Positions 7,223 through 57,029 of a stretch of 64,000 nt of DNA are shown one piece after another. Numbering within the stretch: position 1 is the first letter of the stretch; each line of letters begins with the position of its first letter. This DNA is from Pseudomonas sp. KU26590 (lineage in GTDB: Bacteria > Pseudomonadota > Gammaproteobacteria > Pseudomonadales > Pseudomonadaceae): assembly GCF_026153515.1 (NCBI RefSeq), contig NZ_CP110644.1, forward strand, positions 3,439,501 to 3,503,500. The letters are read 5' to 3'. The notes below the pieces were generated by a model. The model made no database searches, was not told where the DNA came from, and worked only from the letters and a program-made list of their open reading frames with translations. Both the position numbers and the translations under genes were made by a program.

Positions 7223-7291
7223 TGGGCGATTCTGTTAATCAGCCTGTGCCACGAGCAACGCCTCATCCTTCTCCTGGCTTTTGGATCTAAA

Positions 7292-7618
7292 GTGACGAAT
7301 CTCCTGTTCATCTGTAGTCGTAACCAGTGGCGAAGCCCTACAGCGGAAGCGATGTGGCGCCGTCGACCCGGTTTCAATGTGCGTTCGGCGGGCACCAGTT
7401 CCAGTGCACGCAAGCAAGTTGGGCCTGCGGACATTCGCTGGGCAGAAGTGATCTTCGTCATGGAGCGTAAACACCTGCAGCGGCTTCGCGCAGAGTACGC
7501 TCGGCTTCTTGAACACAAGCTCATCCACGTTCTGGAGATCCCTGACGATTTTCAATATATGGATGCCGAACTGGTGGACCTGCTGGAGAGTGGGGTGGGT
7601 GAGTACCTCGGGCGGTAG
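7292..7618 (+). CDS. Low-molecular-weight protein tyrosine phosphatase-like protein
   Basis: This is a small 108-residue protein that begins with FICSRNQWRSPTAEAMW, matching the phosphatase loop (C-X5-R-S) of low-molecular-weight tyrosine phosphatases and arsenate reductases: Cys at residue 8 and Arg at residue 14. Family members are often about 150 residues; this short version is common in Pseudomonas and lacks the canonical C-terminal DPY motif, though an IPDDFQYMD stretch may replace it. Translation begins at GTG 7292. It is followed by a strong bidirectional terminator. Substrate is unknown and there is no obvious partner among its sugar-acid neighbours. Confidence 0.75.
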   Translation: MTNLLFICSRNQWRSPTAEAMWRRRPGFNVRSAGTSSSARKQVGPADIRWAEVIFVMERKHLQRLRAEYARLLEHKLIHVLEIPDDFQYMDAELVDLLESGVGEYLGR

Positions 7619-7652
7619 GCACTTCGCCGGCGAGTTGCGATTAACGGATGAT

Positions 7653-7679
7653 AAAAACCGCCCCAATCGGGCGGTTTTT
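7653..7679. terminator. Bidirectional rho-independent terminator
   Basis: Perfect 11-bp arms AAAAACCGCCC (7653-7663) and GGGCGGTTTTT (7669-7679) flank a five-base loop. A-tract and T-tract on either side let it serve both the phosphatase gene (+) and the dehydrogenase operon (-), which converge here. Confidence 0.92.
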
Positions 7680-7701
7680 CATGGCTCCCTCGGCTTGGCC
7701 G

Positions 7702-9282: not shown

Positions 9283-9389
9283 GTCAGGGCTCCTGATTGG
9301 ATGAGTAAATGTCGGGACACCCGCTGAACCAAGCGGCTCCCCACCGTGCTGGACGATGGGAGCCGGAGTGCCGAAGTAAATGAGAGGTC

Positions 9390-10945
9390 TTACGTGATCG
9401 CGCCGATCTGCCACGGCACGAACTCGTTCTGGCCGTAGCCATGCTGTTCGCTTTTGCTTTTGTCACCCGAGGCGATGCGCAGCATCATGCGGAAGATGTA
9501 TTCGCCGCGTTCCTCGATGGTCATGGTGCCGTCGGCAATCCCGCCGCAGTTGACGTCCATGTCTTCTTCCTGGGTTTCCCACAGACGGTTGTTGGTGGCG
9601 AGCTTGATGGACGGCGAGGGCGCACAGCCATACGCCGAACCGCGCCCCGTGGTGAAGGCAATCAGGTTGGCCCCGCCAGCGACCTGGCCGGTGGCGGAGA
9701 TCGGGTCGTAGCCGGGGGTGTCCATGAACACCAGGCCATGTGCCCTGATGGTTTCAGCGTATTCGTAGACATCCACCAGATCGGTGGAGCCCGCTTTGGC
9801 GACGGCCCCCAGGGATTTTTCCAGAATGGTGGTCAAGCCTCCGGCTTTGTTGCCCGCCGAAGGGTTGTTGTTCAGCTCGGCGTCCATACGCTTGCAATAG
9901 GCTTCCCACCAGTGAATGCGGGCGATGAGCTTTTCACCGACTGTCTGGCTGACGGCGCGGCGGGTCAGCAAGTGCTCGGCGCCGTAGACCTCTGGCGTTT
10001 CCGACAGAATCGCGGTGCCACCGGCTGCTACCAGGCGGTCGACTGCGTTGCCCAATGCAGGGTTCGCCGTGATGCCCGAATAACCGTCCGACCCACCGCA
10101 CTGCAGGCCGATGATCAGGTGGCTGGCGCTGACGGGTTCGCGTTTGACGTGGTTGGCTTCTGCCAGCAGTGACTTCACTTGCGCGATGCCACTGGCGATG
10201 GTTTTCGACGTGCCGCCTGTGCCCTGAATGGTGAACGTGCGCAGCGAATGGCTGCTGGTCAGGCCCTGGGCTGCCAGCAGATCGGGAATCTGATTCGTCT
10301 CACAACCCAGGCCGATCATCAGCACCGAGGCAAAGTTCGGGTGAACGGCATATCCCCCAATGTCCTGCGCAGCATGGCCAGCGCCTCGCCACCCGGATCG
10401 ACGGCGCAGCCCACGCCATGGGTGAGTGCGACGACGCCGTCGACGTTGGGGTATTCAATCAATGCCTCAGGATGAATGTCGCGGCGGAAATAGTCGGCGA
10501 TCGCCCGCGCCACTGTGGCGGAGCAATTGACCGACGTCAGGATGCCGATGTAGTTGCGAGTCGCCACACGGCCATCGGCGCGCACGATGCCCATGAACGT
10601 CTCCGCTATAGGGGCAGGGCTGCCTTTGGCGTCAACACCGAACGCGTAGTCCCGAGAGAAATCGCCCATGGCGACGTTGTGGACATGCACGTGTTGTCCC
10701 GCTTCGATGGACTGGCTGGCGAAGCCGATGATTTGACCGTAGCGGCGCACGGGTTGGCCCACGTCGATATGACGCGCCGCGACTTTGTGACCGGAAGGCA
10801 CAGGCTCAAGCACCTCGATACCTTCGGCTTTAAGCACCAGACCTTTGACCAGCGGTTGCCGGGCGATCAACACATCGTCCAGCGCGTTGAGTCTGATCAC
10901 GGCATTGGCAGCGGTTTCGCTGCCTGTTGTTGTTATGAGCTGCAT
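9390..10945 (-). pseudogene. garD: Galactarate dehydratase (GarD/UxaA family), frameshifted
   Basis: The locus encodes a galactarate dehydratase, which turns galactarate into 5-keto-4-deoxy-D-glucarate. The first part (10945 to about 10355) reads well from an N-terminal SAF domain through RNYIGILTSVNCSATVA and ALTHGVGCAV. It then shifts frame at a five-C run on the + strand (10354-10358) and stops at 10319. The correct continuation, VLMIGLGCETNQ onwards, follows in the other frame to 9390 and includes LQCGGSDGYSGITANPALG and GYDPISATGQVAGGANL. One extra G in the coding strand would restore LGGYAVHPNFASVLMIG. Total length would then be about 517 residues, as expected. Either a real recent inactivation or a homopolymer sequencing error explains it. 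Confidence 0.85.
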
Positions 10946-11000
10946 GACGATTGCCTCGGTTATTCAGTGAGCGCAATGGGAATGGGCAGAACAGGGCAGG

Positions 11001-12326
11001 TCACGCCAATCCACGTTCGCGGTAATCAATCAGACTGGAGAACAGCACCAATCCCAAGGCCATGGCGACGAAGAAAATCAGCGCCAGGAAGTACGAACCG
11101 GTGTATTGCACGATCAAGCCAATCAGGATGGGCACAATCACGCCAACCATGTTGCCGCAGAAGTTCATGCTGCCGCCCAACACACCCGCTTTGGACTGGC
11201 CGCCGAGGATCGCCGGCAGGCACCAGTACATGCCGCACCAGCGAATGAAAAACAGCGCCACGCACAGCAGCGAGATGACCACGACGGCGTCACTGCTATA
11301 CGCCACGGCGAGAATGCACAGGGCGGCAATGGCCGCAGAGCCTGCGAACATGCTGCGCATGACAGTGTTGGGTTGACCACCGGCCGCTTTCCATTTGTCG
11401 GCCACCCAGCCGCCAAACAGTTCACCGATGAACCCGCACATGAAGATCAGAAAGGTCGCGCCGCCCATGGCCTTGATGTCCAGGTTATGGGCCTGGTGCA
11501 AGTAGCTCGGCATCCAGGTGAGCAGGCCGTAGAACACACTGTTGTAGCAAGCGAAGCCCGCGAACATGGCCAGCACTGAACGGCTCTTCAGCAGTTCCTT
11601 GAGGATCGCCTTGCGCCCGCCCGTGGCTTTTCTGGCCGCTTCATTAGCGTCAGTGATGTACGCCAGCTCTGCAGCATTGACCTTAGGGTGCTCACTGGGG
11701 TGGTTCCTGATGTACCACCATGCCCATACGCCCACGACCATGGTGCCCAGGCCGGCGATGACGAAAGCTATCCGCCAGGAGCCAAACCAGGTGATCAATC
11801 CCGCAATCAGGATCGCGCCCAGTGCAGTGCCGAGCGGTGCGCCGCCATCGACCAGGGTCGCACCGCGACCGCGCTCATTGGGCGTCAGCCAGGCACCGTT
11901 GAGCTTGGCCCCGGCCGGCATGATCGGCGACTCTGCGACACCCAGGCCGATGCGCGTGATGAGCAGCGTGATCCAGTTGTGTGCGCCGCCCGCCAAGGCC
12001 TGGAACAGACCCCAGCCAATGGTGGCGATGCCGACAATGTTGCGGGTCTGAAAACGGTCAAGCAGCATGCCGCCAGGGATCTGCATGAGCGCATACGACC
12101 AGAAGAACGCGCTGAGCATCAAACCTTCCAGCGCCGGCGTCATGTTGAAATCAGCCGAGATCAGCGGCAGCGCAACGGACAGCGAAGCCCGGTCGATGTA
12201 GTTGATGGCGGAGAGCAGCAGCAGGAGCAGGAATATCCTCCACCGCACGGTGGTGGGACGGGCGCTCGTGGCACTCGTCGAGGCAGTCGCCGTGACGACC
12301 TGTACATTGCCAGTGGTCATGTTCAT
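11001..12326 (-). CDS. MFS hexarate permease (GudP/GarP-like)
   Basis: This is a second ACS-family major facilitator of 441 residues with 12 predicted membrane helices. The SAINYIDRASLSVALPLI stretch in helix 1, LLDRFQTRNIVG between helices 2 and 3, and GLGVAESPIMPAGAKLNGAW in helix 4 fit glucarate, galactarate or related sugar-acid permeases. It sits between the GguC/AraD1-like gene and galactarate dehydratase in one leftward operon, so its likely load is galactarate or glucarate. It is only distantly similar to the first permease at 3341, so the window holds two non-identical hexarate carriers. The N-terminal 25 residues are Thr/Ser/Ala-rich and cytoplasmic. Confidence 0.85.
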   Translation of the reverse strand: MNMTTGNVQVVTATASTSATSARPTTVRWRIFLLLLLLSAINYIDRASLSVALPLISADFNMTPALEGLMLSAFFWSYALMQIPGGMLLDRFQTRNIVGIATIGWGLFQALAGGAHNWITLLITRIGLGVAESPIMPAGAKLNGAWLTPNERGRGATLVDGGAPLGTALGAILIAGLITWFGSWRIAFVIAGLGTMVVGVWAWWYIRNHPSEHPKVNAAELAYITDANEAARKATGGRKAILKELLKSRSVLAMFAGFACYNSVFYGLLTWMPSYLHQAHNLDIKAMGGATFLIFMCGFIGELFGGWVADKWKAAGGQPNTVMRSMFAGSAAIAALCILAVAYSSDAVVVISLLCVALFFIRWCGMYWCLPAILGGQSKAGVLGGSMNFCGNMVGVIVPILIGLIVQYTGSYFLALIFFVAMALGLVLFSSLIDYRERGLA

Positions 12327-16872: not shown

Positions 16873-18996
16873 TTATGGAATGGAATAGTCCAGGCCAATG
16901 GCTTCATCATTGGCGTCCCTCGCCACCCACATTTTGTAGTCGCCGCTCCTGATCTCGAAGCTGCCAGTGTCGTATTGAGCCAGTATCCTCGGCTCCGGCT
17001 TAATTTCTACCGCTGCGCGCTCGCCTGCCTTCAAGAACACCTTCTGGAAGCCTGCCAGCCGCTTCGCAAAGCCCGAAGTCCCCAGTTTCTGAACATAAAC
17101 CTGCACCGCGATGGCTCCGTCACGCTCGCCTGTATTTTCCACATCGGCCGTGATGGTTAGCGGTTCACGGCGAGTGATCCGACATTCCGATAGTTCGAAA
17201 CGTGTGTAGGACAGCCCATAGCCGAATGGGAAGAGCGGAGCCAAGCCTTCTCTGGCAAACCACCGGTATCCAACGTCCGAACCTTCAATGTCGTAGTCGA
17301 TAGGGATGATATCTCCTATGCGCGGCATACCCGGGTTTGAGGTGGTGGTGGCCGGGTCGATCTGGCCGGGTCGGGGGAGTTGTTGCTCACTGGCCGGGAA
17401 GGTAACAGGAAGGTGACCGGATGGATTCACCCGGCCAAACAGTGCGCCGGCAATCGCCGGCCCACCGCCTGAACCCGGATACCATGCGGCCAGCACCGCC
17501 GAAACCTTATCAAGCCACGGCATCAGCACAGGGCCACCGCTCTGGAGCACCACGATAGTTTTGGGGTTCACTGCAGCGAGTGCTTCGATCAAAGCGTCCT
17601 GATCATCTGGCAACCCCAGCCCCTTGGCATCAAGCGCTTCAGAGCGCCACTCCTGGGCGAAGATAACAACTGCGTCTGCGATACGCGCTTGCGCGACGGC
17701 AACCGCCTTGTCGGTGCCGTCAAGAAAATCTACCTGTTGCGCAGCGCTTTCTTCGCGGATGGCCTGGAGCGGCGAGGAGGGCTGGTAGACCTTATTAACC
17801 TGCATGCCCATGATGTCGGTACCGGGCAGCGACAGACTACCGATAGGCGTCACGCAGGAAGAGCCGCCGCCACACAGCACCCCATGATCGGCGTGCGCAC
17901 CAACAACCAGTAACCGCTTGGCACGTTGGGGCAACGGTAGCGCGGCATCAGTATTTTTCAGCAGCACGATACCTTCTTCAGCTTGGCGTTGCGCAACGAG
18001 TCTGTGATGGCTGTAATCAATTGGTTGGGGCAGGGCGGTAGGTTGGTCGAGAGCGCCTACTGAGATCAGGCTGCGCAGGATTCGCGTGACCATGTCATCA
18101 ATGCGGCTTTGAGGAACGTGACCATCGGTCACTGCTTGACGCAGTGCTTGGCCAAAGTAGTGGGCGTCATCCAGGTTAGCGCCAGACTGCACATCCAGTC
18201 CTGCGAGCGCGGCCTTGATCGTTGAGTGGGTGGCCCCCCAGTCGGACATCACCCATCCGGGATAGCGCCAATCACGCTTTAGCACTTCGTTCAGCAGGAA
18301 TGCATTCTGCGAAGCGTATTCGCCGTTGATGAGGTTGTAGCCAGGCATGATTGAGCCCGGTTGGCCGATTTCGATAGCGAGCTGAAAAGCCAGGAGGTCC
18401 GATTCACGCAGCGCGGCTTCACTCAGGTTAGAGCTGACCATCACTCGGCCGGTTTCCTGAGCGTTGACGGCAAAGTGCTTGAGTGTCGAGACTACGCCTT
18501 CTGACTGGATCCCTGCGATGGAGTGACCGGCGATGACGCCGGTGAGCAGAGGGTCTTCCGAGACGTATTCGAAATTGCGCCCGCCGCGGGGTTCTCGAAT
18601 CAGATTTGCGCCCCCAGCCAGCTGTACGTTGAAGCCTTTGGATCTGGCTTCACGCCCTACGAGTGCGCCTGATTCGAACGCTACCTCAGGATTAAACGTC
18701 GCGCCGAGCAGCAGCGAGCTAGGCAAACCGGTGGCGTGATCACCCGGGCGGACATCGGCCAGGTTACCGACGCCCAGGCTCGCATCCGATTGCTGCATGG
18801 GCGGGATGCCAAGCCGTGGAATGCCTGGAAAGAAACCGGCCGATCCCAAAGCGCCTTCAGGCTTTTCAGTATCGCCCAAGGGAATAGCCATCGGGCCGGA
18901 CAGCCATGAAAACTTTTCGTCATCGGTCATTTGCGCCACCAATACGCGCGCTTGTTCATCGGCGTTCTGGTCGTGCAGTTCGGCTGTGCTAGTCAC
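16873..18996 (-). CDS. Glycoside hydrolase family 3 beta-glucosidase-like enzyme
   Basis: This is a large GH3 enzyme of about 707 residues. The TIM-barrel domain carries KHFAVNAQETGR and the nucleophile aspartate in WVMSDWGATHS; the alpha/beta sandwich domain (GIVLLKNTDAALPLP, PKTIVVLQSGGPVLMPWL) and the C-terminal fibronectin-III-like domain (PFGYGLSYTRFE, then AVQVYVQ) follow in the usual order. No signal peptide is visible. The start is uncertain: GTG 18996 is used here, and the frame stays open upstream with an ATG at 19104. The first seven codons lie in a 153-bp sequence repeated at 26333, and IS66 debris lies just beyond, so the native 5' end may have been replaced. It likely hydrolyses oligo- or aryl-glucosides. 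Confidence 0.85.
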   Translation of the reverse strand: MTSTAELHDQNADEQARVLVAQMTDDEKFSWLSGPMAIPLGDTEKPEGALGSAGFFPGIPRLGIPPMQQSDASLGVGNLADVRPGDHATGLPSSLLLGATFNPEVAFESGALVGREARSKGFNVQLAGGANLIREPRGGRNFEYVSEDPLLTGVIAGHSIAGIQSEGVVSTLKHFAVNAQETGRVMVSSNLSEAALRESDLLAFQLAIEIGQPGSIMPGYNLINGEYASQNAFLLNEVLKRDWRYPGWVMSDWGATHSTIKAALAGLDVQSGANLDDAHYFGQALRQAVTDGHVPQSRIDDMVTRILRSLISVGALDQPTALPQPIDYSHHRLVAQRQAEEGIVLLKNTDAALPLPQRAKRLLVVGAHADHGVLCGGGSSCVTPIGSLSLPGTDIMGMQVNKVYQPSSPLQAIREESAAQQVDFLDGTDKAVAVAQARIADAVVIFAQEWRSEALDAKGLGLPDDQDALIEALAAVNPKTIVVLQSGGPVLMPWLDKVSAVLAAWYPGSGGGPAIAGALFGRVNPSGHLPVTFPASEQQLPRPGQIDPATTTSNPGMPRIGDIIPIDYDIEGSDVGYRWFAREGLAPLFPFGYGLSYTRFELSECRITRREPLTITADVENTGERDGAIAVQVYVQKLGTSGFAKRLAGFQKVFLKAGERAAVEIKPEPRILAQYDTGSFEIRSGDYKMWVARDANDEAIGLDYSIP

Positions 18997-19127
18997 GTCA
19001 GTGCCCCGTAATGGATATACGGTTCTGAGTGGTGTCTGGCTTGGGGGTTCCCAGCGATGTCCCTCAGCCTCCGACAGAGTGACTGCCTGCAGGGCGAGAG
19101 ACATGACCCTCTGGCGTTGGCATCCTG
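18975..19127. repeat. 153-bp dispersed direct repeat, copy A
   Basis: This stretch aligns without gaps to 26333-26485 in the same orientation, with about 12 mismatches by eye (about 92% identity). It covers the start codon and promoter region of the GH3 gene. The mismatches do not favour third codon positions of the GH3 frame, so the shared segment is probably not coding. Confidence 0.9.
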
Positions 19128-24776: not shown

Positions 24777-25592
24777 TCAAAATCGATAAACGTAGCCCGC
24801 GCGCGCGCCCGCTTGCTGCCCACGCTCAACCAAGGGGCTGTCCTTAATACCGCTGCCAAGCAAGGTTGTCCCCATATCCAGGAAAACCATCTGTTTGGAG
24901 GTGAACGAGTAGTCTGTCCGAAAGCCCAGCTCAATGTTGGTTGCCGACTCGCCACTGTACTGCGGTCGATCAGCACGCACTTCTGAAGGTCGCACACCGT
25001 AGTAATAATCGACAAATCTGCTGTCCATTATTTGCACTGCTGCCCGAGGGGTGAATCCCCAAGCGCCCATTGCCAACCGACGATCTACCTGCAGTTTGAA
25101 CCGCGTCCCATCGCTATTTCCGGAGCCGTCGACCAGTGCTTCCGCACTGACATTGGCTACATCGTTGCGCCAGATCGCCGCGCCGCCAAGCCAAATACTG
25201 TTTTTGCGCTCATCCATTCCTTCCAGGTAGGGTGAGTCGCTCTCTTCGTAGCCGTCATTGGCATAACGTGCACGCAGCCGAAAGTCGACTGGGCCGGCAG
25301 AGGGAAGCTTAATGTCTATGCTTGGAAAGCCCAGGCTTATCCATTTGTTTTCATAAGTCAGTATGGGAATGGGTTGAGCTTTGTCGTCAAAGTCGCGATA
25401 AGCACGACGCTCCATTGCTGCACCGAGCCCCATGCTCCACTGTGATCCGCCATCTTTGAATTTGTCCTGCTCATTTTGCGCCCATGCGCTGGGTAGAAGC
25501 GCCAAGCAAAGAGCTCCCGCGAACCAGCCTGCACGGGTAAGACGTTTGGGTACGGCTAGGCGGTAGGGCTGGAACGGCTGCACAGTTGTCAT
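24777..25592 (-). CDS. MipA/OmpV-family outer-membrane protein
   Basis: This is a 271-residue protein with a cleavable signal peptide (hydrophobic stretch GALCLALLPSAWA, cleavage likely after AWA). The mature part is a beta-rich barrel ending in an aromatic residue (AGYVYRF), typical of outer-membrane export. Family features include PIPILTYENKWISLGFPSID and FTPRAAVQIMDSRFVDYYYG. MipA/OmpV proteins are often induced with two-component systems under metal or antibiotic stress. It is the first gene of a leftward trio with the response regulator and kinase. Its upstream region runs into repeats. Confidence 0.85.
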   Translation of the reverse strand: MTTVQPFQPYRLAVPKRLTRAGWFAGALCLALLPSAWAQNEQDKFKDGGSQWSMGLGAAMERRAYRDFDDKAQPIPILTYENKWISLGFPSIDIKLPSAGPVDFRLRARYANDGYEESDSPYLEGMDERKNSIWLGGAAIWRNDVANVSAEALVDGSGNSDGTRFKLQVDRRLAMGAWGFTPRAAVQIMDSRFVDYYYGVRPSEVRADRPQYSGESATNIELGFRTDYSFTSKQMVFLDMGTTLLGSGIKDSPLVERGQQAGARAGYVYRF

Positions 25593-25862
25593 AGCGGATT
25601 CCCAAAATATGTAGAGTTGGCCGACAGTCGCGTTGATCGCGATACCGTGGCTGGGAAAGATGCGCCGGTGGGGTTAATAGTTTTTTATGATTGTTAAGAA
25701 TTTATTAGGTGGGGATTTAAAAGCGGTTTTGAGTGCGAGCCTCATTCCGGTTCCTCCTGGAATCGGATTCGATGTGTATGGGAAAAGCGTTCGAGTAACC
25801 CATAGCCAACGCATTGCGCTATCGACATGTTGGGTTGCACTTGATGCCGAAAATCGGCCATA

Positions 25863-25909
25863 GGGAGGAGGGCGAAACGTTTTCTTGGTCGGCGGATTTG
25901 CGCACGGCG
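25863..25909. repeat. 47-bp dispersed repeat, copy A
   Basis: Matches 32537-32583 in the same orientation with one mismatch. It precedes the 251-bp repeat in both places, with unrelated spacers of about 119 and 148 bp between the two blocks. Confidence 0.9.
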
Positions 25910-26028
25910 TACCTCCTTGATTGTCCATCCCGCCCCAAGCAACAGGACGTGCAACTGGCTCAAGGTGTGGCCGAACACTGACTGTATGAGCAGCGCTAAC
26001 TGCTAGTAGCAGCGCAAGCACAGGCCGC

Positions 26029-26279
26029 AAAGTCTTTCAGAAGGGGTCGGCTCCATCTTGCTTAGGGATCCCTGAGCCGTGACAGTCTGAGAGGATATCT
26101 TCGTTGTCGAAGCAAGGCCTGCAGCGGACGCAGATCATCAATGCTCAACTTTACTCTCCACGGCGTTTCCGGATCGCGGCGCGCGTATCGTTTGCAATGT
26201 AGCTAGGCTGTCTTGTCCTAGCGCAATCTGCGCACCAACCTCGTTGAGGCAAGACCAAGCGAGCTTCCCGTTGCGGCTA
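26029..26279. repeat. 251-bp dispersed direct repeat, copy A
   Basis: Aligns without gaps to 32732-32982, same orientation, with about eight mismatches by eye (about 97% identity). The two copies bracket the radical SAM cassette and the IS3 element, a span of about 6.7 kb. Confidence 0.92.
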
Positions 26280-26305
26280 TCTGATACCCGAACGACATGA
26301 CACAT
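26138..26305 (-). CDS. Small hypothetical ORF within the 251-bp repeat
   Basis: A 55-codon frame starts at ATG 26305 and includes RNGKLAWSCLNEVGAQIALG before a TGA at 26138. It resembles nothing I can name. In the second repeat copy the same frame lacks its start and first ten codons because the homology ends at 32982. Differences between the copies include at least one silent change, but the sample is too small to show selection. It may be a real small gene of which the right copy is a truncated duplicate, or chance. Confidence 0.3.
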   Translation of the reverse strand: MCHVVRVSDSRNGKLAWSCLNEVGAQIALGQDSLATLQTIRAPRSGNAVESKVEH

Positions 26306-26332
26306 GGCTTATATTGGCTTAGATGGAGGGGG

Positions 26333-26485
26333 GCAGTTCGGCTGTGCTAGTCACGTCAGTGCCCCGGAATGGATATAAGGTTCTGAGTGGTGTCTGGCTT
26401 GGGGGTTGCCAGCGATGTCCCGCAGCATTCGATAGAGTGACTGTCTGCTGGGCCAGAGACATGAACCTCTGGCTTTGGCATCCTG
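26333..26485. repeat. 153-bp dispersed direct repeat, copy B
   Basis: This is the partner of 18975-19127 (about 92% identity, no gaps). Here no GH3 gene follows; the sequence beyond both edges is unrelated to copy A. Confidence 0.9.
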
Positions 26486-26671
26486 GGCGATGTCAGATAT
26501 TCATACGCAAATCAGAAGCCCAAGAGTACTGGCTCAGCGCCCCTGAAATGAACGCAACTGTTCATCTATCAGTGTTCATAGACCTAGCGTTCCCCGTCAT
26601 TAGTCTCGTCGCCCCGACCGTTATCCTTGCATCCGGTGATGATGGAGGTATAGCACAATGCCGCTGTGCCG

Positions 26672-26754
26672 GCCGAACGCCGAAACCACCCGCGCCAGGG
26701 CGGTTTCGGTACCAGCGCGCATGTCCATGGGCTGGTTGGCGAGCCAGATGGAAT
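26672..26754 (-). pseudogene. IS66-family TnpB (Orf2), 5' remnant
   Basis: On the reverse strand this reads SIWLANQPMDMRAGTETALA followed by RVVSAFG, the well-conserved N-terminal segment of IS66 TnpB proteins. Homology stops after about 27 codons and the start is lost. It is a fragment abutting the stop of the radical SAM gene, and with the TnpC tail at 19288 it indicates IS66-type elements once flanked the 19.3-26.7 kb segment. Confidence 0.7.
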
Positions 26755-26762
26755 AGATGTTC

Positions 26763-28448
26763 CTAACTACCAGGGTGAATGTTTTTGATACTTATGAAAT
26801 CAGTGCGTAACTGTTGGGAGTCAGCGCTCGCAAACAACCGCTCAAATCTATCGCTCGAAATATAGTGAACCTCGTCATAGTCATCAATGAGCGCGTCATT
26901 ATTTAGCATTTTGGCCATGGCACCACGAGCTTGCGTAATCTCAAGTGGAGAATAATAATCGGTGTTGAGGGAGCCGAGATAGAAAGTAATGACTTCTGGA
27001 TCTACATTCAGATCATATGCCAATCGATCATGATGACGCTTAAAATCGACAGTTCCTGGCAGCAACGAGAGAATATAAACATTAAAATAGATCTGTACTT
27101 TCGAATTGAATGCTTTGCATACACTTCTTATTTCCTCAGATCTTAAATAGGTTAAACAAAGGTTGTGCTCATCATCTTCGGGGCGGCCGATAATGACATT
27201 GAATGAAAGTGAGTGCACGCCTGTATTAACAATGCTTTCTAAAACATTCTTTATCACGCCCAAAGGCTTTAATTTTCTAAACAGTTTGGATGATTCGTCA
27301 GTGAGGTTCTCCAGTGGCAGTGTGGCTCTATAACACCCGATCAGGTCACCATTGACGACGGTAGAATCAAACATAACTCGAATAAGCTCATGATCAACAA
27401 CGCCTTCATGCTCGAACTGCCCTAACTCTATGCCATTCGTAAACTCCCAACAAAAACCCATATCTCGTGCCAAATTGAACATGTCAAACAACTCATCTCT
27501 GCCATCATCGAATGCTGAATGACCAGAGGAATGCCGATGAATTCTTGAAAGAAGATTGTCTTCCTGAAGTAGGAGAGTACGAATTCCCTTAGATTTGAAA
27601 TACTCAAAATGCTGACGTATTTTTTCTAGCTGCATAAATCTAAAGCGCCCTTTTGTACTGGGCGTTGCGCAAAATGAACACGCCTGCGCGCACCCCCTGG
27701 AAGTTTCCACACTAATAAATGGACCTTGAATTCCAAAAGGAGGTTTACCTTCTCCGGTATCCGAGTAGCTTTCTAAATCCACTAACTCGAAATCCGGAGG
27801 TAGCATGTCATTTACGTCATAAGCACCTGATCGGGACAAGAAGGTTTTCGATGTATGCTGAATCGTTCCGTCTTTTGCACGAAATGCAATATTCGGGATG
27901 TTGTCAAAACTCCAATTCTTATCAATGCACTCGAGTAAATCGGCGAAGCATAGCTCACCCTCGCCCTTGACTACGACATGTGCGCCACAATCAATATGGA
28001 ATTCAGGAGCAACCGTAGCGTCCGTTCCTCCCAGAACAATCACTGCCCGAGGATTTTGAACGGCACAAAATCGAATAAAGTCAGCAACGATATTGCGAGA
28101 GTGTGTAAAATTCGAATTTATCCCAATAACGTCAGACGTAGTTATTTCCGAAACTACAGCTTCAAATGGTTGGCCGATTCTGTATTTCTCAAGTGTGATA
28201 TCACCAAGCTGTAACTCCCCATATTTAACCTTGCATCTATCTTCATAACTAGTAGCTCCTTGGGTCTGCATATCACAAATATGCAGATCAACCACTACAT
28301 TCCGCGCTGATAGGGTATTCCGAAGCCCAGCAACTAAAGCCGTTAATGGGGCTTTGTGCATATTCGTCCGGACCGTGCCTAGAAAACGATCATCGCCCTT
28401 TATACATTGCCCAGGTGCGGGGACTGAAAATAGAGTAACGCGGAGCAT
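26763..28448 (-). CDS. B12-binding-type radical SAM enzyme, function unknown
   Basis: The protein (561 residues from ATG 28448, which has AAGG seven bases upstream) combines a cobalamin-binding-like N-terminal domain with a radical SAM core. The first part has the Rossmann-like pattern DVIGINSNFTHS, AVIVLGGTDATVAPEF and HVVVKGEGELCFADLLECI typical of B12-dependent radical SAM proteins. The [4Fe-4S] ligands are in SRGCAQACSFCATPSTKG (C-X3-C-X2-C). A long C-terminal part with DEHNLCLTYLRSEEI follows. Such enzymes methylate, cyclise or otherwise alter unreactive carbons or thiols. It is the third gene of an AT-rich operon with a SAM methyltransferase and an EamA exporter. No known product is recognised. 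Confidence 0.8.
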   Translation of the reverse strand: MLRVTLFSVPAPGQCIKGDDRFLGTVRTNMHKAPLTALVAGLRNTLSARNVVVDLHICDMQTQGATSYEDRCKVKYGELQLGDITLEKYRIGQPFEAVVSEITTSDVIGINSNFTHSRNIVADFIRFCAVQNPRAVIVLGGTDATVAPEFHIDCGAHVVVKGEGELCFADLLECIDKNWSFDNIPNIAFRAKDGTIQHTSKTFLSRSGAYDVNDMLPPDFELVDLESYSDTGEGKPPFGIQGPFISVETSRGCAQACSFCATPSTKGRFRFMQLEKIRQHFEYFKSKGIRTLLLQEDNLLSRIHRHSSGHSAFDDGRDELFDMFNLARDMGFCWEFTNGIELGQFEHEGVVDHELIRVMFDSTVVNGDLIGCYRATLPLENLTDESSKLFRKLKPLGVIKNVLESIVNTGVHSLSFNVIIGRPEDDEHNLCLTYLRSEEIRSVCKAFNSKVQIYFNVYILSLLPGTVDFKRHHDRLAYDLNVDPEVITFYLGSLNTDYYSPLEITQARGAMAKMLNNDALIDDYDEVHYISSDRFERLFASADSQQLRTDFISIKNIHPGS

Positions 28449-28488
28449 TTTGACACCTTCCATAGTGAGTAGATAAATTAATCAGTAA

Positions 28489-29391
28489 TTACGAGTCTAA
28501 GACGGTCTTTACAGCTGTAGTTTTGGCCAAGCCCAGCATCACCCCAGCAATGACGAGAGCCATAGAAATGACTTGAGTGAAATATATATTTTCTTCTAGA
28601 AAAGCCACCGAAAATAATAACGTGAATATAGGGACCAGGTTAAAATACAGTGCCCCTTGAGCAACCGAGACTTTTGATATTCCGTAATTAAATAAAGTAT
28701 AGGCTGCTGCAGTCACAATCAATCCTAGATATAACACGGCAAGCGCGGCATTTAGCCCTATAGAGATACCACCTGCGGCCTCATAGGCTGCAAACGGCAG
28801 AAAGAATATTGCACCAGTGAAGCTCTGGATCGCAGCAAGTAGGAATGGCGAGTACATACCAGTTAAGCGTTTCAGCAAAACGGTGTATATGGCTGCGCAC
28901 GCCATAGCCAGAAGCTCTAGAAAATTTCCCAGGACTGGTGCGCTAGCCTCTCCCTCATGACTTCCGGTAAGGCATAAGACTAAAACACCTGCGGCAGCTA
29001 ATAACCCACCCGCGCACTGAAGAGTACTGGGTTTATCGTGATATATAAGATAAGAAAACAGCATTATCAAAACAGGTAGGAACGCAAATACCACACCAGC
29101 CTGTGAAGCGCTAGTATACTGTAGAGCTTTTGTCTCCAAGATAAAATACAGACACGGCTCGAAAAAGCTCATCACTAATAACAACCATCGATCCTTGATG
29201 GCTATCGACTTTCGAACACCAAACTTCCAAAACAAAGCAAAAAAACCACTGCCTAGGATCAGTCGCAAAAACATCAGTACAAATGGAGGCACTTCAATAA
29301 GTGCAATCTTTATTGCTACAAACGCACTGGCCCATAGCGCCATTGCCCCAGCCAAACTCATGAACACAAGTAGCTTAGATTTTCCGCACAT
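28489..29391 (-). CDS. DMT-superfamily (EamA) exporter
   Basis: This is a 300-residue protein with ten membrane helices formed by two EamA repeats. The first contains LWASAFVAIKIALIEVPPFV and the second begins around GNFLELLAMACAAIYTVLLK; the internal duplication is typical of drug/metabolite exporters such as RhtA and YdcZ relatives. It lies 40 bp upstream of the radical SAM gene and 54 bp after the methyltransferase on the same strand, so it probably exports the product of the two enzymes. Codon and base usage are AT-rich like its neighbours. No strong ribosome site is seen before ATG 29391; an internal ATG at codon 11 is possible. Confidence 0.82.
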   Translation of the reverse strand: MCGKSKLLVFMSLAGAMALWASAFVAIKIALIEVPPFVLMFLRLILGSGFFALFWKFGVRKSIAIKDRWLLLVMSFFEPCLYFILETKALQYTSASQAGVVFAFLPVLIMLFSYLIYHDKPSTLQCAGGLLAAAGVLVLCLTGSHEGEASAPVLGNFLELLAMACAAIYTVLLKRLTGMYSPFLLAAIQSFTGAIFFLPFAAYEAAGGISIGLNAALAVLYLGLIVTAAAYTLFNYGISKVSVAQGALYFNLVPIFTLLFSVAFLEENIYFTQVISMALVIAGVMLGLAKTTAVKTVLDS

Positions 29392-29445
29392 ACATTGCCA
29401 TATTCATTTCAAATAAATTGTGGGCCCACTGCATCAGTTCCTCTA

Positions 29446-30399
29446 CTATCCCTTCTGTAAGGAAAGTCGAGAGTCGACAACAGCTAAAATATGGTTGGCA
29501 AAATTAAGATAGCGAGAATCACGAGATACCCTTGCTTCCAATGAGAGAAGATCCTCGATTGGCAACGAATTGGCTGTCGAATCATCTCCGACCCATCGCG
29601 GGTCAGGAGTTAGTCGGGAAATTAATATATCTAGCCCCGTAAACTCGGCGCTAACAGAGTGCTGCATTAAAGCCGTTTGTAGTTGCTCATGAGAAATTAG
29701 GTTTGACCTGAGCACATGAAAGCCTCCAGCCTTGTCTAACGCATAAAGATGTTCATCCTTTCTATCGAAATGAATAATCTCTGTCATTGGTGCGGCATAG
29801 AAGGTTGGGTTGCTAAATGGCGGCTTAACCGAAAAATACAAAACTCCATTTGATGCACGCACTAGCTCACCAACCGAAAATGTAAGGTCTTTAGCAGGTA
29901 AATGATTGAGCACTGTGTGAAGGCACAAAACTAAGTCATACCCTCCAGACTTGATATGAGCTGGGAGACCCACAGAAAGATCACATAGCTCATAACTGAT
30001 CTCAGCGTTATTTTCACTAAACCGTGCTAGGAGGTCGTTAAAGTTTAACTTGGCAAGTGCTATCATGGAGGGCGATAGATCCAAGCATGCTATTTCCACT
30101 TTAACTGATCTAGTCATGCAGTAGTTGGCTATACGAAGGGCCCACGCCCCATCGCCACATCCAACGTCCAGTACGCGAATTGAGGCTTTTTTTATTTCTC
30201 TGCGTGCTTCGATGAGAACCTCAAGATACTTCTCTATCGACTGCCATGTCTGAATGTCACCCCAGGAAAACGTACGAGCGGTATCGGTTTCTTTAAGGCT
30301 TAGCAACTCGGTTAACGACGACGTACCGTTAGCATAATTTGTGTATGACGTTGAAAAGGAGTCGTAGAAACTTTTAACCTGGTCATTGGAATTTTTCAC
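29446..30399 (-). CDS. Class I SAM-dependent methyltransferase
   Basis: This is a 317-residue soluble methyltransferase. Motif I, the SAM-binding loop, reads RVLDVGCGDGAWALRIANYC; the next acidic strand is EIACLDLSPSMIALAKLNF, motif IV is YDLVLCLHTVLNHLP, and a post-motif strand GVLYFSVKPPFSNP follows. The N-terminal 70 residues (SFYDSFSTSYTNYANG) resemble the substrate-binding cap of small-molecule methyltransferases. Translation starts at GTG 30399 with AAGGAAG seven bases upstream. It is the first clear gene of the cassette with the exporter and radical SAM enzyme. Acceptor unknown. Confidence 0.82.
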   Translation of the reverse strand: MKNSNDQVKSFYDSFSTSYTNYANGTSSLTELLSLKETDTARTFSWGDIQTWQSIEKYLEVLIEARREIKKASIRVLDVGCGDGAWALRIANYCMTRSVKVEIACLDLSPSMIALAKLNFNDLLARFSENNAEISYELCDLSVGLPAHIKSGGYDLVLCLHTVLNHLPAKDLTFSVGELVRASNGVLYFSVKPPFSNPTFYAAPMTEIIHFDRKDEHLYALDKAGGFHVLRSNLISHEQLQTALMQHSVSAEFTGLDILISRLTPDPRWVGDDSTANSLPIEDLLSLEARVSRDSRYLNFANHILAVVDSRLSLQKG

Positions 30400-30876
30400 T
30401 GCGTGTCTTCCTTGATTTTTTTGAATCGGCGACTCAACCTATAATACTGGCTGATGCCCGTGGCGATCTTTGTTGATTTCGAGATAGGTGTCAAGCCTAT
30501 TCGATTGATGGCCAGCAAACATGAGGCTTCTGGGAGCGTCAGCACTTGTATGCCGTCCCGAAGCGTTTGCCTGCATAGATGCTTGATGTGGAACAAGATT
30601 TATGGCAGCACTGGTTCTGGAAGGAAGCAGATACTCGCTATGCTTAGCCGGAGTACTTGTAGATAGTGCCAGATACATGATTTTGTGCGCAAATGGCTAG
30701 GCAATCAAAGCGGTCAGGGCTATTGGGTTGATAACCCTAACAACCCGCCTGCGCCCAGCGCTTTGAGATTTGAGTTTTGAGTTTTGAGTTTTGACATATA
30801 GATTGGCTGATTTGGCTGATTTGGCTGGGAGTATAGGTATCTGTCTTCAGTAGACATTGCATTAGACGCGGCGTTT
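30400..30876. other. Upstream region of the radical SAM cassette
   Basis: This 477-bp gap between the methyltransferase and the IS3 element holds no confident gene. A 66-codon reverse-strand frame (30596-30396, TTG start directly after a stop, no ribosome site) ends in a TGA overlapping the methyltransferase GTG start; it may be the tail of a lost gene. Short tandem repeats lie at 30762-30828. The cassette's promoter should lie here or have been removed by the IS3 insertion. Confidence 0.5.
30762..30828. repeat. Two adjacent short tandem repeats
   Basis: A seven-base unit TTTGAGT is repeated about four to five times (30762-30797, first unit varied to TTTGAGA, last to TTTGAC), closely followed by about three copies of ATTTGGCTG (30801-30828). 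Such slippage-prone tracts near a promoter may cause length variation. Confidence 0.7.
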
Positions 30877-30906
30877 TTTAAAGGTAGTTGTCGCGTCACC
30901 GTCTAA

Positions 30907-31932
30907 CTATGCTGCTCTTTTCTCGACCTGTTGCTCTCGATCCGGATTCAGCAGCACGGTGCCGATCGGTTCCCAGTTACGCGTCCGGCCTGACCACCGT
31001 TCCGGTCTTTTTTCCTTGGCTCGTTCGTACAGCTCATGTCGCTGGGCCAAGACTTTATGATCCAGTCCTCGATGCCGCTCAGCCGGTGTGACGAACCGGA
31101 TACGGCTATGTCGGTGCTCGTTGTTGTACCACCGTATGAAGTCCCTCACCCAGCTGCGTGCGGCGTCCAAACTGGCAAAACCATCCTGCGGCCATTGCGG
31201 GCAGTATTTCAGTGTTCTAAACAACGACTCCGAGTACGGATTGTCGTTGCTGACACGCGGTCGGCCACGTGACGGGGTGATACCCAGGTCGTACATTTTG
31301 CTCAGCAGTGTCACCGATTTCATCGGCGCGCCGTTATCCGAGTGCAGCACCAGCGGGTCTTGTAAACACTGCTCACCGATCACGCTGCGTTGCAGCAGCG
31401 CAGCGGCTTTCTCGCCACTTTCCGCCTCATAGACTTCCCAGCCCACGGCCTTGCGGCTGTAAATATCCTCGATCAGATAGAGGTAATAAAACTGGCCGCG
31501 TATCGGCGACGGCAGGTACGTGATGTCCCACGACCACACTTGGTTCGGCGCTTTGGCCGCATGCGTCGTTGGTGCGGCGTACCGTCTGGGGCGCTGACTA
31601 CGGCCTCGATGTTGCTGTTGCCCCGTCGCTCGCAAGACACCATAGATCGTCGCCTCCGACGCCAGATAGCGCCCTTGATCGGCCAGGCGCGGCACGATCT
31701 GGCTTGGCGGCAAGTGGGCATACTGCGGGCTGTTACACAGCGTCACAATGGCCTGTCGCTCTGCCTCGGTCAGCGCATTTCGTGGCGTTGGCCGTGTGAC
31801 CGTCGTACGGGCGTCGGTCTGGATAGCGTCTGTTTGAGTCCACCGTTGCAAGGTGCGCAGCGACAGACCAACTTCCCGACAGGCCCTGATTTTTCTGGCT
31901 CCCGCCGCGACCGCTTCGCCCAGCCAGGCCAC
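30907..31932 (-). CDS. IS3-family transposase OrfB (DDE catalytic subunit)
   Basis: This is a 341-residue integrase-core protein. The catalytic acids are readable: first Asp in WSWDITYLPSP, second in LVLHSDNGAPM and Glu in NDNPYSESLFRTLKY. An N-terminal helix-turn-helix (REVGLSLRTLQRW) and a QIVPRLADQGRYLASEATIY segment precede it. The listed start is GTG 31932, but the frame is open upstream across the orfA stop, and a -1 shift near 31960 would join OrfA to OrfB, as is usual in this family. Intact and probably active. Confidence 0.88.
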   Translation of the reverse strand: MAWLGEAVAAGARKIRACREVGLSLRTLQRWTQTDAIQTDARTTVTRPTPRNALTEAERQAIVTLCNSPQYAHLPPSQIVPRLADQGRYLASEATIYGVLRATGQQQHRGRSQRPRRYAAPTTHAAKAPNQVWSWDITYLPSPIRGQFYYLYLIEDIYSRKAVGWEVYEAESGEKAAALLQRSVIGEQCLQDPLVLHSDNGAPMKSVTLLSKMYDLGITPSRGRPRVSNDNPYSESLFRTLKYCPQWPQDGFASLDAARSWVRDFIRWYNNEHRHSRIRFVTPAERHRGLDHKVLAQRHELYERAKEKRPERWSGRTRNWEPIGTVLLNPDREQQVEKRAA

Positions 31933-31958
31933 GAGTAACTGCCGCTCTGGCAGAGACG

Positions 31959-32519
31959 TTAGTTGGCCTCGTCGTCGGTCGTTCCCCAGTAGTCGTTGAG
32001 CTTTTTTCGCAGCACCAATAACGCGGCTGTTTCAGCGAGCGCCTTGTCTTTGCGGCGCAGTTCGCGCTCAAGTTCCTGGATGCGTTTCTTGTCTTTGCGC
32101 GCCTGGTCTCGTTCTTCTTTTTGCAGGGCCTTTTCCGATTTCTGGCCGGTGATGAAGGCTTGTCGCCAGGCCGTGATTTGCTCGGGGTAAAGGCCTTTGC
32201 GGCGGCAGTATTCACCCAGGTCGATCTCGGACAAACCGGCGGCTTCAAGCACGACAGCAAACTTGGTTTCGGCTGACCAGTTCTCGGTCAACGGCTTGTT
32301 TTCGGACACTGCACTTCCTTCAGAACTGAGCTGTTTGCGCCAGTTGGACAAAGACATTTCGCTGACCCCTTCGCGCCGGGAAACCTCGGCCATCGACAGG
32401 TTCAGCGGGGGAAGCAGCATTTTGAGTAATGCGGCTCTGCGTTCAGGTGAATAGTACGGCACGACCAGTCTCTTTCCGCCCCCGATATACTTTTTTAGGA
32501 AAAACCGGAGAGGCGACAA
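31959..32519 (-). CDS. IS3-family transposase OrfA (DNA-binding subunit)
   Basis: This is a 186-residue protein with two helix-turn-helix segments (SMAEVSRREGVSEMSLSNWR and LSEIDLGEYCRRKGLYPEQI) and a C-terminal coiled coil (KKRIQELERELRRKDKALAE) that acts as a leucine-zipper-like oligomerisation region in IS3 OrfA proteins. It is longer than the roughly 100-residue OrfA of many IS3 members, which fits the group with a duplicated HTH. It ends 26 bp before the listed orfB start, in the 0 frame relative to the -1 orfB frame. Confidence 0.85.
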   Translation of the reverse strand: MSPLRFFLKKYIGGGKRLVVPYYSPERRAALLKMLLPPLNLSMAEVSRREGVSEMSLSNWRKQLSSEGSAVSENKPLTENWSAETKFAVVLEAAGLSEIDLGEYCRRKGLYPEQITAWRQAFITGQKSEKALQKEERDQARKDKKRIQELERELRRKDKALAETAALLVLRKKLNDYWGTTDDEAN

Positions 32520-32536
32520 CTATCCTGACACCGGGG

Positions 32537-32583
32537 GGGAGGAGGGCGAAACGTTTTCTTGATCGGCGGATTTGCGCACGGCG
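32537..32583. repeat. 47-bp dispersed repeat, copy B
   Basis: Copy of 25863-25909 with a single G-to-A difference, six bases outside the IS3 right end. Confidence 0.9.
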
Positions 32584-32731
32584 ATCATACTAGCCTGGAT
32601 AGTTTTCAAATGTCGGCAGTCGCAAGGTTGTGCTCCCAGCATATGTCTATATTGGACTCGCTCGCAGCTCCACCAAACAAACCCCCACAGAAGTAAATGT
32701 GCAAATAGAGGAAGCATCTCATTTGATCCCT

Positions 32732-32982
32732 AAAGTCTTTCAGAAGGGGTCGGCACCATCTTGCTTAGGGATCCCTGAGCCGTGACAGTCTGAGAGGATA
32801 TCTTCGTTGTCGAAGCAAGGCATGCAGCGCAAGCAGATCATCAATGCTCAACTTTACTCTCCACGGTGTTTCCGGATCGCGGCACGCGTATCGTTTGCAA
32901 TGTAGCTAGGCTGTCTTGTCCAAGCGCATTCTGCGCACCAACCTCGTTGAGGCAAGACCAAGCGAGCTTCCCGTTGCGGCTA
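32732..32982. repeat. 251-bp dispersed direct repeat, copy B
   Basis: Partner of 26029-26279. Together with the 47-bp copy it makes the right border of the AT-rich cassette. The surrounding gap 32531-33099 contains no credible gene. Confidence 0.92.
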
Positions 32983-33099
32983 GTTGACGGGTGCGGTTCC
33001 AAAATCGGCGGTTATGCGTAGGTATATTCCGAGCCTGTCGAGTGTCCAGCGCGGTAGCTACTGTGGAGCTACTGCCACCTCATGCACTCAGAGAACGCA

Positions 33100-33231
33100 A
33101 TGATGAACAACAATAGCCCGCTCCAGCGTGATGGCGGAGATGAATTCGGTCGTGGTTTCACATGCTGCTCATCGGTGGTCGACATTATCCAATCCATTGA
33201 AAATGACCTCTCACTGCACGCTGGAGAATGA
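33100..33231 (+). CDS. Possible 43-residue small protein upstream of the lipoprotein pair
   Basis: A short frame beginning with two consecutive ATG codons at 33100 runs to a TGA ending at 33231, two bases before the preferred start of the lipoprotein gene, whose ribosome site lies inside it. The sequence (start MMNNNSPLQRDGGDEFGRGF) matches nothing I know. The close spacing suggests a leader or coupled small gene, but chance is possible. Confidence 0.35.
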   Translation: MMNNNSPLQRDGGDEFGRGFTCCSSVVDIIQSIENDLSLHAGE

Positions 33232-33233
33232 CC

Positions 33234-33491
33234 ATGAACATGAACGTGACCCGGTTGGGGACATCTTTGGGGTTGGTGATGGCAATCACACTGACATCCG
33301 GCTGCATGCAGCAACGCAATCGTGAGACTGAAGCACGCATCAGTGGTGCCGAGGACATGGCAGCAGCGGCGAGGGTGCATGCCAATGATGCCTACACCAA
33401 GGCTGAACAGGCGTTGAAGGTAGCCCTTGAAGCCCAGCATTCGGCAGACGATGCGAACAGGCGTGCGAGCCAGAGACTCGACAAAAAATGA
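33234..33491 (+). CDS. Alanine-zipper outer-membrane lipoprotein (Lpp/OprI-like)
   Basis: This is a lipoprotein of about 85 residues. The signal peptide LGTSLGLVMAITL ends in a lipobox LTSG-Cys. The mature part is a continuous helix with alanine-rich heptads (AARVHANDAYTKAEQALKVA) and ends in RLDKK, like Lpp/OprI, whose terminal lysine can be linked to peptidoglycan. ATG 33234 was chosen because GGAG lies seven bases upstream; ATG 33228 would be too close. The next gene overlaps its stop by four bases. Lpp-type proteins tether or shape the envelope. Confidence 0.85.
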   Translation: MNMNVTRLGTSLGLVMAITLTSGCMQQRNRETEARISGAEDMAAAARVHANDAYTKAEQALKVALEAQHSADDANRRASQRLDKK

Positions 33492-33907
33492 AACTGTTTG
33501 TGTGGCTCTCGCTGGTCGCACTGGCCGGCTGCCAGCAGCTCGCCGGCTCTGGGCCCCCTGAAGTGTCAGACGGTAGCACTGAACCCTTGATCGAAGTGGG
33601 CAAGTCCCGGGTGGAGGTTCCGGTGTCAAGCGCCGAGCGCAAAGCAGCTGAGGCGAAAGCGCTCACAGGGGTCGAGGGCCAGGGATGGGTATTCGATCCG
33701 CCGTTTGCCACCGCGCGCAACGATCACGGAGATGATCTGGCCGTATGCGGCCACGCCCATCAGCCCGGGAGCGAGAACACGCTTTTCTTTGCGTTCTACC
33801 AGGGTGAGTTGCTGCTATGGGACGAGAAGGCCCCGGCGGGGGTCAGCGTTGAGAATGAATTCCTGACGCTTATTTGCAGCGCCTCACCGTTGGTGACCCA
33901 TTTATAA
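33488..33907 (+). CDS. Hypothetical lipoprotein
   Basis: This is a 139-residue protein with a lipoprotein signal (VWLSLVALAGCQQ, cysteine at residue 15). After the lipid anchor comes a low-complexity linker, then a compact domain with GWVFDPPFATARNDHGDDLA and FFAFYQGELLLWDEKAPAGV that I do not recognise. ATG 33488 overlaps the preceding TGA, so it is coupled to the Lpp-like protein and probably works in the same envelope setting. Confidence 0.65.
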   Translation: MKLFVWLSLVALAGCQQLAGSGPPEVSDGSTEPLIEVGKSRVEVPVSSAERKAAEAKALTGVEGQGWVFDPPFATARNDHGDDLAVCGHAHQPGSENTLFFAFYQGELLLWDEKAPAGVSVENEFLTLICSASPLVTHL

Positions 33908-56751: not shown

Positions 56752-57029
56752 CGGCCTGAGGGCTCCTTATGAAACGGCGGGTGAGGGGGCGGTTCATGCC
56801 GTCAGTTCAACGGTAGCCGCTGTTGATTGAACCCATGGGCCCTACAGGATGTTACAGCACTGCGCCGCGTGCTTTGCGGGACAACCGACTTGCAGTCTGG
56901 TGAAGGGTGCGGCAGCGAACAGACGCGGCCAGGTGGTGCGCGCAGAGTGCTCGAACAGCGCCGGTGCATGCCGACAGAACCTTTGTCGGTGCCGGGCCAA
57001 TCCGTAGGCGCTCTGAAGAGGACATTCCC

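What the first reader, a model, noticed from the sequence alone, without database searches (positions are those of the whole stretch)
26763..30399. AT-rich cassette: B12-type radical SAM enzyme, EamA exporter and SAM methyltransferase
Three same-strand genes with gaps of 40 and 54 bp form a compact unit whose base composition is clearly lower in GC than the flanks. A cobalamin-type radical SAM enzyme plus a classical methyltransferase plus an exporter is the pattern of a small-molecule or peptide modification and export system. I recognise no known pathway that matches this set. No precursor peptide, NRPS, PKS or aminotransferase gene is visible nearby, so the substrate may be a common metabolite or made elsewhere. 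This is the strongest candidate for an undescribed system in the window.
Basis: partly seen in the sequence, partly recalled or inferred. Interest (0 to 1): 0.88.

Follow-up and report, generated by a model that had tools for sequence, protein, structure and literature searches.

The report
Mobile three-gene metabolite methylation-export cassette
A foreign-looking block of three genes in a Pseudomonas genome encodes a radical enzyme, a methyl-transferring enzyme and an exporter that also sit together in a second Pseudomonas in a different order, so they probably make and export one small molecule whose identity is not known.

Summary
Three minus-strand genes (MT 30399-29446, EamA 29391-28489, B12-type radical SAM 28463-26763) form the lowest-GC 3.6 kb of the window (43.6% against 58.1%), among IS remnants and bracketed by a 251-bp direct repeat. 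In a second Pseudomonas (G232) orthologues of all three (52, 63, 76% identity) are adjacent again in another order and orientation, beside luxI/luxR; three more MT/radical-SAM pairs are implied by equal contig lengths. The radical SAM protein belongs to a sharply bounded, rare subfamily (63 proteins at 270 bits or more, next 73), meets no NCBIfam cut-off, has an intact CxxxCxxC, and folds over its full length like class B radical SAM enzymes. It is not MiaB/RimO or ArsL. The tempting match, VioG/VioH (methyl-azetidine-carboxylate), fails its test: the MT lacks two of three azetidine-synthase signatures. Best reading: a mobile pathway that C-methylates (or otherwise radically modifies) a small amino-acid-like metabolite, methylates it at a second site, and exports it. 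Cofactor, substrate and product are not shown. New variant of a known kind.

The parts
29446..30399 (-). Class I SAM-dependent methyltransferase, 317 aa, GTG start with AAGGAAG ahead of it; first gene of the unit
28489..29391 (-). EamA-type (drug/metabolite transporter superfamily) exporter, 300 aa, two EamA stretches
   Evidence: 157.7 bits to PF00892; orthologue in the G232 cassette at 62% identity, next best in G000 or G232 29%
26763..28448 (-). B12-binding-domain radical SAM protein, 561 aa from ATG 28448 (ORF reaches ATG 28463); CxxxCxxC at residues 253/257/260
26029..26279 (+). left copy of the 251-bp direct repeat (96.8% identical to the right copy)
   Evidence: no third copy reported in G000, where 3 of 23 first-look candidates were scored
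32732..32982 (+). right copy of the 251-bp direct repeat
25863..25909 (+). left copy of a 47-bp direct repeat in the same order as the 251-bp one; right copy at 32537-32583
   Evidence: 97.9% identity
30907..32519 (-). IS3-type transposase ORFs (30907-31932 rve/IS3; 31959-32519 HTH_Tnp_1) upstream of the cassette
   Evidence: NF033516 193.7 bits, cut-off 160, for the first ORF; PF01527 51.1 bits, cut-off 24.1, for the second
26624..26761 (-). short IS66 TnpB-like remnant directly downstream of the rSAM gene
   Evidence: PF05717 18.7 bits, E 0.0016, below the gathering cut-off of 26.6

Best explanation
A horizontally acquired, self-contained three-gene pathway for one exported small molecule. 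Shown: three orthologous genes kept together across a rearrangement, low GC, mobile-element setting, intact radical SAM cluster motif, class B fold. Inferred: the rSAM protein binds cobalamin and one [4Fe-4S] cluster, cleaves SAM to a 5'-deoxyadenosyl radical, abstracts hydrogen from an unactivated carbon of a small amino-acid-like metabolite and passes a methyl group from methylcobalamin to that carbon. The class I MT then (or before) methylates the same molecule at N, O or carboxyl. The EamA protein carries the product out. In the G232 relative the unit lies beside luxI/luxR, so there it is probably switched on at high cell density. The role would be an antimetabolite or a signal.
Confidence: 0.5

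Rival explanations
1. The pair works like VioG/VioH: the rSAM enzyme C-methylates the aminocarboxypropyl arm of SAM itself, and the MT-fold protein cyclises the methylated SAM to a methyl-azetidine-2-carboxylic acid that EamA exports as a proline mimic.
For: The published azeJ 'cluster III' pairs an AZE synthase with a B12-rSAM enzyme, clusters II-IV often carry drug/metabolite transporters, many are bounded by mobile elements, and VioG plus VioH give methyl-AZE in vivo (PMC11794875, parts 1-4 of 9 read). The SAM-methylating B12-rSAM enzyme Orf29 is established (PMC7277169, part 1 of 6 and 12 passages). The MT family keeps an N-terminal FY in 17 of 18 rows.
Against: AZE-synthase signatures stated to be in all AzeJ homologues include PFNxxGN and RxxYYxxC. 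The MT family has CLHTVLN in 18 of 18 rows, and [R/N/K/S]PTFYAxxM with Arg in 12 of 18 and Asn in the window's own protein. In my motif alignment (by eye) Phe134 corresponds to Leu and Tyr175 to Phe; F134L lost function and F134H and Y175F kept 11-23% activity in AzeJ. No AzeJ or VioH entry among 54 PDB profile hits at E up to 1.
Confidence: 0.1
2. The rSAM protein is not a methylase but a class B enzyme doing dehydration, rearrangement or ring contraction (AprD4- or OxsB-like); the MT does the only methylation.
Confidence: 0.22
3. It modifies a ribosomal peptide, and the precursor gene has been overlooked.
For: In Ruminiclostridium (L004) the subfamily member sits near a LanM-like gene, a class III aminotransferase, an MT and a protein weakly like the daptide RRE model (22.8 bits, cut-off 150).
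Against: No precursor-like ORF was noted beside the trio in the window (ORFs of 80 aa or more only) or in G232 (150 aa or more); short ORFs were not surveyed systematically. rSAM_ocin_1 gives 38.5 bits, cut-off 281.85. EamA proteins are small-molecule carriers (recalled).
Confidence: 0.08
4. Arsinothricin-like logic: the rSAM enzyme transfers a SAM-derived aminocarboxypropyl group to a small acceptor, the MT methylates it, the exporter ejects it (as in ArsL/ArsM/ArsQ).
For: Same three-part operon plan in arsQML (PMC8552651, 12 passages, one from the abstract).
Against: The window protein is not listed for ArsL NF040542 at E up to 0.001; five relatives reach 20-35 bits, cut-off 450. No ars genes were recognised nearby, by eye. 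ArsQ is GntP-like, not EamA.
Confidence: 0.04
5. The three genes are unrelated passengers in an IS-rich island.
For: Mosaic region with IS genes, a remnant and repeats.
Against: Orthologous trio adjacent in G232 in another arrangement.
Confidence: 0.06

Closest known systems
VioG/VioH and azeJ 'cluster III' (methyl-azetidine-2-carboxylate), PMC11794875
   Same: B12-type rSAM enzyme plus an MT-fold partner, often with a drug/metabolite transporter and mobile elements
   Different: The MT here lacks the PFNxxGN and RxxYYxxC signatures; no NRPS, tRNA-ligase-like or ATP-grasp gene was recognised among the neighbouring ORFs (partly by eye)
Orf29/Orf30 (Swb7/Swb6), norcoronamic acid, PMC7277169
   Same: A B12-type rSAM methylase working with one further enzyme to make a small amino acid
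   Different: The partner there is a PLP enzyme (ACC synthase); here it is a class I MT. The Orf29 sequence was not obtained, so the proteins were not compared
ArsQML, arsinothricin, PMC8552651
   Same: Minimal three-gene plan: rSAM enzyme, MT, exporter
   Different: ArsL and ArsQ belong to other families; no arsenic genes recognised here
Class B cobalamin radical SAM enzymes of known structure (CysS, TokK, OxsB, TsrM, MgmA) and AprD4
   Same: Rossmann domain plus radical SAM barrel along the full length
   Different: 12-17% identity in the structural alignments; separate subfamily by score gap; no shared substrate-binding feature identified

Membership tests
Class B (B12-binding) radical SAM enzymes | CxxxCxxC cluster motif | tested here: met
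   C253/C257/C260, invariant in 33 aligned rows; the string is present in 65 of 65 tree rows, 4 of them outgroups
Class B (B12-binding) radical SAM enzymes | N-terminal B12-binding Rossmann domain fused to a radical SAM barrel | tested here: met
Class B (B12-binding) radical SAM enzymes | binds cobalamin | not testable with these tools
   needs purified protein; AprD4 has the same architecture and (recalled) no cobalamin
MiaB/RimO methylthiotransferases | reaches the family models TIGR00089/01574/01125/01579 | tested here: not met
   21-31 bits against cut-offs 251-357; no UPF0004 or TRAM domain listed
ArsL (arsinothricin) | reaches NF040542 (cut-off 450 bits) | tested here: not met
   window protein not listed at E up to 0.001; five relatives 20-35 bits
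AzeJ/VioH azetidine synthases | FY motif at the N-terminus | tested here: met
   F11-Y12 in 17 of 18 rows, one row gapped; weak, as similar motifs are common in class I MTs (recalled)
AzeJ/VioH azetidine synthases | PFNxxGN motif | tested here: not met
   CLHTVLN in 18 of 18 rows
AzeJ/VioH azetidine synthases | RxxYYxxC motif | tested here: not met
   [R12/N3/K2/S1]PTFYAxxM in 18 rows; Asn in the window's own protein
AzeJ/VioH azetidine synthases | closest fold is AzeJ/VioH | tested here: inconclusive
   not among the 50 rows shown in either listing
Orf29/Swb7 SAM C-methylases | adjacent PLP-type ACC-synthase gene (as in the six clusters named in PMC7277169) | tested here: not met
   the genes next to the rSAM gene in the window and G232 are EamA and MT
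Orf29/Swb7 SAM C-methylases | sequence clade | not tested
   the Orf29 sequence was not obtained
RiPP-type B12 rSAM C-methyltransferases (TIGR03975) | reaches the family cut-off | tested here: not met
   38.5 bits, cut-off 281.85
EamA / drug-metabolite transporter superfamily | two EamA repeats | tested here: met
   157.7 bits, 2 stretches

The most novel reading that the evidence does not exclude
The cassette is a minimal, mobile, in G232 probably quorum-regulated pathway in which SAM, or a proteinogenic amino acid, is the substrate: an undescribed B12-rSAM subfamily C-methylates it and an MT of a small undescribed family completes a new non-proteinogenic amino acid that EamA secretes as an antimetabolite, without any NRPS or peptide carrier.
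Probability: 0.2. Interest if true: 0.75.

Novelty: new variant of a known kind. Interest (0 to 1): 0.5.

Why it matters
Few class B radical SAM enzymes have known substrates (recalled). Here a whole subfamily that reaches no NCBIfam cut-off sits in a pathway of just three genes, small enough to express whole in a laboratory strain and read out by mass spectrometry. If the product is a free non-proteinogenic amino acid, it would show such compounds being made and exported without an assembly line, and would give a genome-mining handle that, to my recollection, tools built around NRPS, PKS and RiPP cores do not look for.

Tried and rejected
Methylthiotransferase: rejected, scores far below cut-offs. 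ArsL/arsinothricin: rejected as membership. Azetidine synthase: tested by motif and not met; kept as a low-probability rival. AzeJ/VioH chains did not appear among the displayed PDB fold hits or among 54 profile hits; absence there proves nothing about fold. A PDB search with the distant MT relative P0138 gave 44 rows, mostly general methyltransferases, none of them AzeJ or VioH.

Searches that gave little. Plasmids with the rSAM protein: 22 records, none covering 80% of the query; the 20 listed are 20-26% identical. Plasmids with the MT: 6 records, 38-40% of the query covered; one was opened, a Vibrio plasmid stretch without annotation. Viral contigs: 50 loci, partial matches at 22-48% identity. 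Rfam on 25500-33500: 0 matches. Promoter-like sites: 7 found, 7.5 expected by shuffling. Palindrome scan of the L083 luxR-MT gap, the L083 region upstream of EamA and the window's region upstream of the MT: none. A lux-box-like pattern recalled by me gave three matches in L083 (5924, 16457, 16667), none in the luxR-MT gap, and none in the window's upstream region. LuxI/LuxR remnants in the window: tblastn at E up to 1 gave no hit. Own-genome LuxI: none. Empty-site test: 3 of 98 other Pseudomonas genomes matched the left flank plus repeat, two of them by 29-66 bp only, so no clean empty site was obtained. MT profile in 398 genomes of the family: only the window's own. rSAM protein in 144 relatives: only the window's own. 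Class of the Micromonospora genome: only that genome, of 394. Relatives of the Bacteroidetes genome: only itself, of 80. Relatives of the Ruminiclostridium genome: itself plus one E 6e-33 match, of 80; that locus, read, has no MT or EamA gene recognised in its 4 kb.

Limits. The protein search scored only the 7996 candidates sharing most words. Rows dropped: the tree used 56 of the 63 subfamily rows, those longer than 480 aa, plus 5 locus proteins and 4 outgroups, 65 in all; alignment A1 used 33 of the 63.
Full report
What is there. Close homologues start at the second ATG, 28448, which has a GGAAGGTG ahead of it, so the protein is 561 aa and the EamA-rSAM gap 40 nt. Pfam confirms the three domain assignments. 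Trio GC is 43.6% in a 58.1% window, and the lowest 3637-bp stretch of the whole window starts 3 bp from the trio.

Setting. Downstream lies a short IS66 TnpB-like remnant (26624-26761, E 0.0016, below Pfam's cut-off). Upstream, after about 500 bp without an ORF of 80 aa, lie IS3-type transposase ORFs. The block is bracketed by a 251-bp direct repeat (26029-26279 and 32732-32982, 96.8%), with a second 47-bp repeat in the same order. A search of G000 reported no further copy, though it scored only 3 of 23 first-look candidates. The left flank plus repeat is itself rare: apart from G000, 3 of 98 other Pseudomonas genomes matched, one of them over 930 bp around MipA at 79% and two by 29-66 bp only. 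This is a mosaic island; the repeat pair would fit integration by one crossover or a local duplication, but no empty site was obtained to decide.

It is a unit. The rSAM gene is rare: 2 of 398 sampled Pseudomonas genomes, one being the window's own; an overlapping sample of 298 gave the same two, and 144 relatives gave only the window's own. The MT profile matched 1 of 398 genomes of the family, the window's own. In the second genome, G232 (locus L083), luxI (6306-6896 minus), luxR (7024-7845 minus), MT (8092-9036 plus), rSAM (9122-10792 minus) and EamA (10917-11861 minus) lie side by side. Identities to the window are 52% (MT), 63% (EamA) and 76% (rSAM). EamA orthology is specific: 62% to the G232 cassette copy, 29% at most to any other EamA match of the two genomes. 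The genes have changed order and strand yet stayed together, which is hard to explain without a shared function. In G232 luxI, luxR, rSAM and EamA are 44-47% GC and MT 50%, while the two flanking genes measured are 54 and 58%, so the quorum pair appears to belong to that block. In the protein collection, 3 of 17 MT rows share their exact longest-contig length (4102, 10476, 25995) with an rSAM row, evidence that they lie on the same contigs; the other 14 do not, which is inconclusive because only the longest contig of a cluster is shown. The window genome gave no match to G232's LuxI.

Neighbours elsewhere. In R. hungatei (37% identity) the rSAM gene is followed on the same strand by an EamA gene of another lineage (21% identity to the window's), near a LanM-like gene, a class III aminotransferase, an MT and a protein weakly like the daptide RRE model (22.8 bits, cut-off 150). 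In Micromonospora two tandem copies follow an A-T-reductase NRPS-like gene, with an ATP-grasp gene downstream. In the Bacteroidetes MAG (49%) no MT or EamA gene was recognised nearby; a likely branched-chain amino-acid-type ABC transporter follows (my reading of the sequences, not tested by HMM; the two ORFs flanking the rSAM gene have no Pfam match). In these three genomes the MT profile gave no match in two and one partial match at E 6.6e-4 in the Bacteroidetes genome. So the rSAM subfamily is used in several contexts, and the trio as such was seen only in Pseudomonas.

The MT. It is a class I fold (pLDDT 78.1; best VIA hits include CmoM, TM1389, METTL6, DhpI, glycine N-methyltransferase and ToxA). 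Because a B12-rSAM enzyme, an MT-fold protein and a drug/metabolite transporter recur together in the published 'cluster III' of azetidine synthases (PMC11794875; parts 1-4 of 9 read), I tested that idea directly. The paper gives three signatures present in all AzeJ homologues: FY, PFNxxGN and RxxYYxxC. The MT family shows FY (17 of 18 rows), but CLHTVLN in place of PFNxxGN (18 of 18) and [R/N/K/S]PTFYAxxM in place of RxxYYxxC, with Asn in the window's own protein. By my motif alignment, made by eye, the essential Phe134 is Leu here, and F134L lost function in AzeJ. The MT is therefore not filed as an azetidine synthase; a separately evolved cyclase is not excluded.

Reading. The most economical account is a small mobile pathway: radical modification, most likely C-methylation, of a small amino-acid-like metabolite; methylation at a second position by the class I MT; export by EamA; in G232 probably under AHL quorum control. 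The amino-acid-like guess rests on finding no assembly-line gene beside the trio, on what DMT carriers usually carry (recalled), and on the analogy with MeACC, methyl-AZE and arsinothricin pathways; it is inference. Substrate, product, cofactor and order of steps are unknown.

Literature. Seven paper searches were run. I recognised no description of this trio in the rows they listed. The library holds open-licence papers only and each listing is capped, so this is not proof that it is undescribed. Papers opened: PMC11794875 (parts 1-4 of 9), PMC7277169 (part 1 of 6 plus 12 passages), PMC8552651 (12 passages), PMC10491745 (10 passages), PMC10301443 (3 passages; a figure legend lists EamA, rSAM and LanM-like genes around a clostridial Agr locus, which may bear on L004 but not on the window).

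Noticed in passing
26029-26279 and 32732-32982: 251-bp direct repeat, 96.8% identical, with a 47-bp partner repeat, bracketing the cassette plus IS3; no third copy reported in the genome.
   Followed up: partly
18975-19127 and 26333-26485: 153 bp from the start of a beta-glucosidase-like ORF (by eye) is repeated at 92% beside the cassette, a further sign of local rearrangement.
   Followed up: no
L005 5238-15108: Micromonospora cluster with an A-T-reductase NRPS-like gene, two tandem members of this rSAM subfamily and an ATP-grasp gene; product unknown.
   Followed up: partly
L004 3537-14744: Ruminiclostridium locus combining a class III aminotransferase, an MT, a protein weakly like the daptide RRE model (below cut-off), a LanM-like protein and an rSAM-EamA pair; possibly a peptide cluster.
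   Followed up: partly
L083 6306-7845: luxI and luxR genes inside the low-GC block beside the trio in G232.
   Followed up: partly
L083 5924, 16457, 16667: Three lux-box-like palindromic matches to a recalled pattern, outside the luxR-MT gap; may be chance.
   Followed up: no
53464-54276 and 56907-57845: Two related two-domain ORFs (PRC-barrel-like by eye, no HMM run) in opposite orientation, 68% identical at DNA level over about 590 bp.
   Followed up: no
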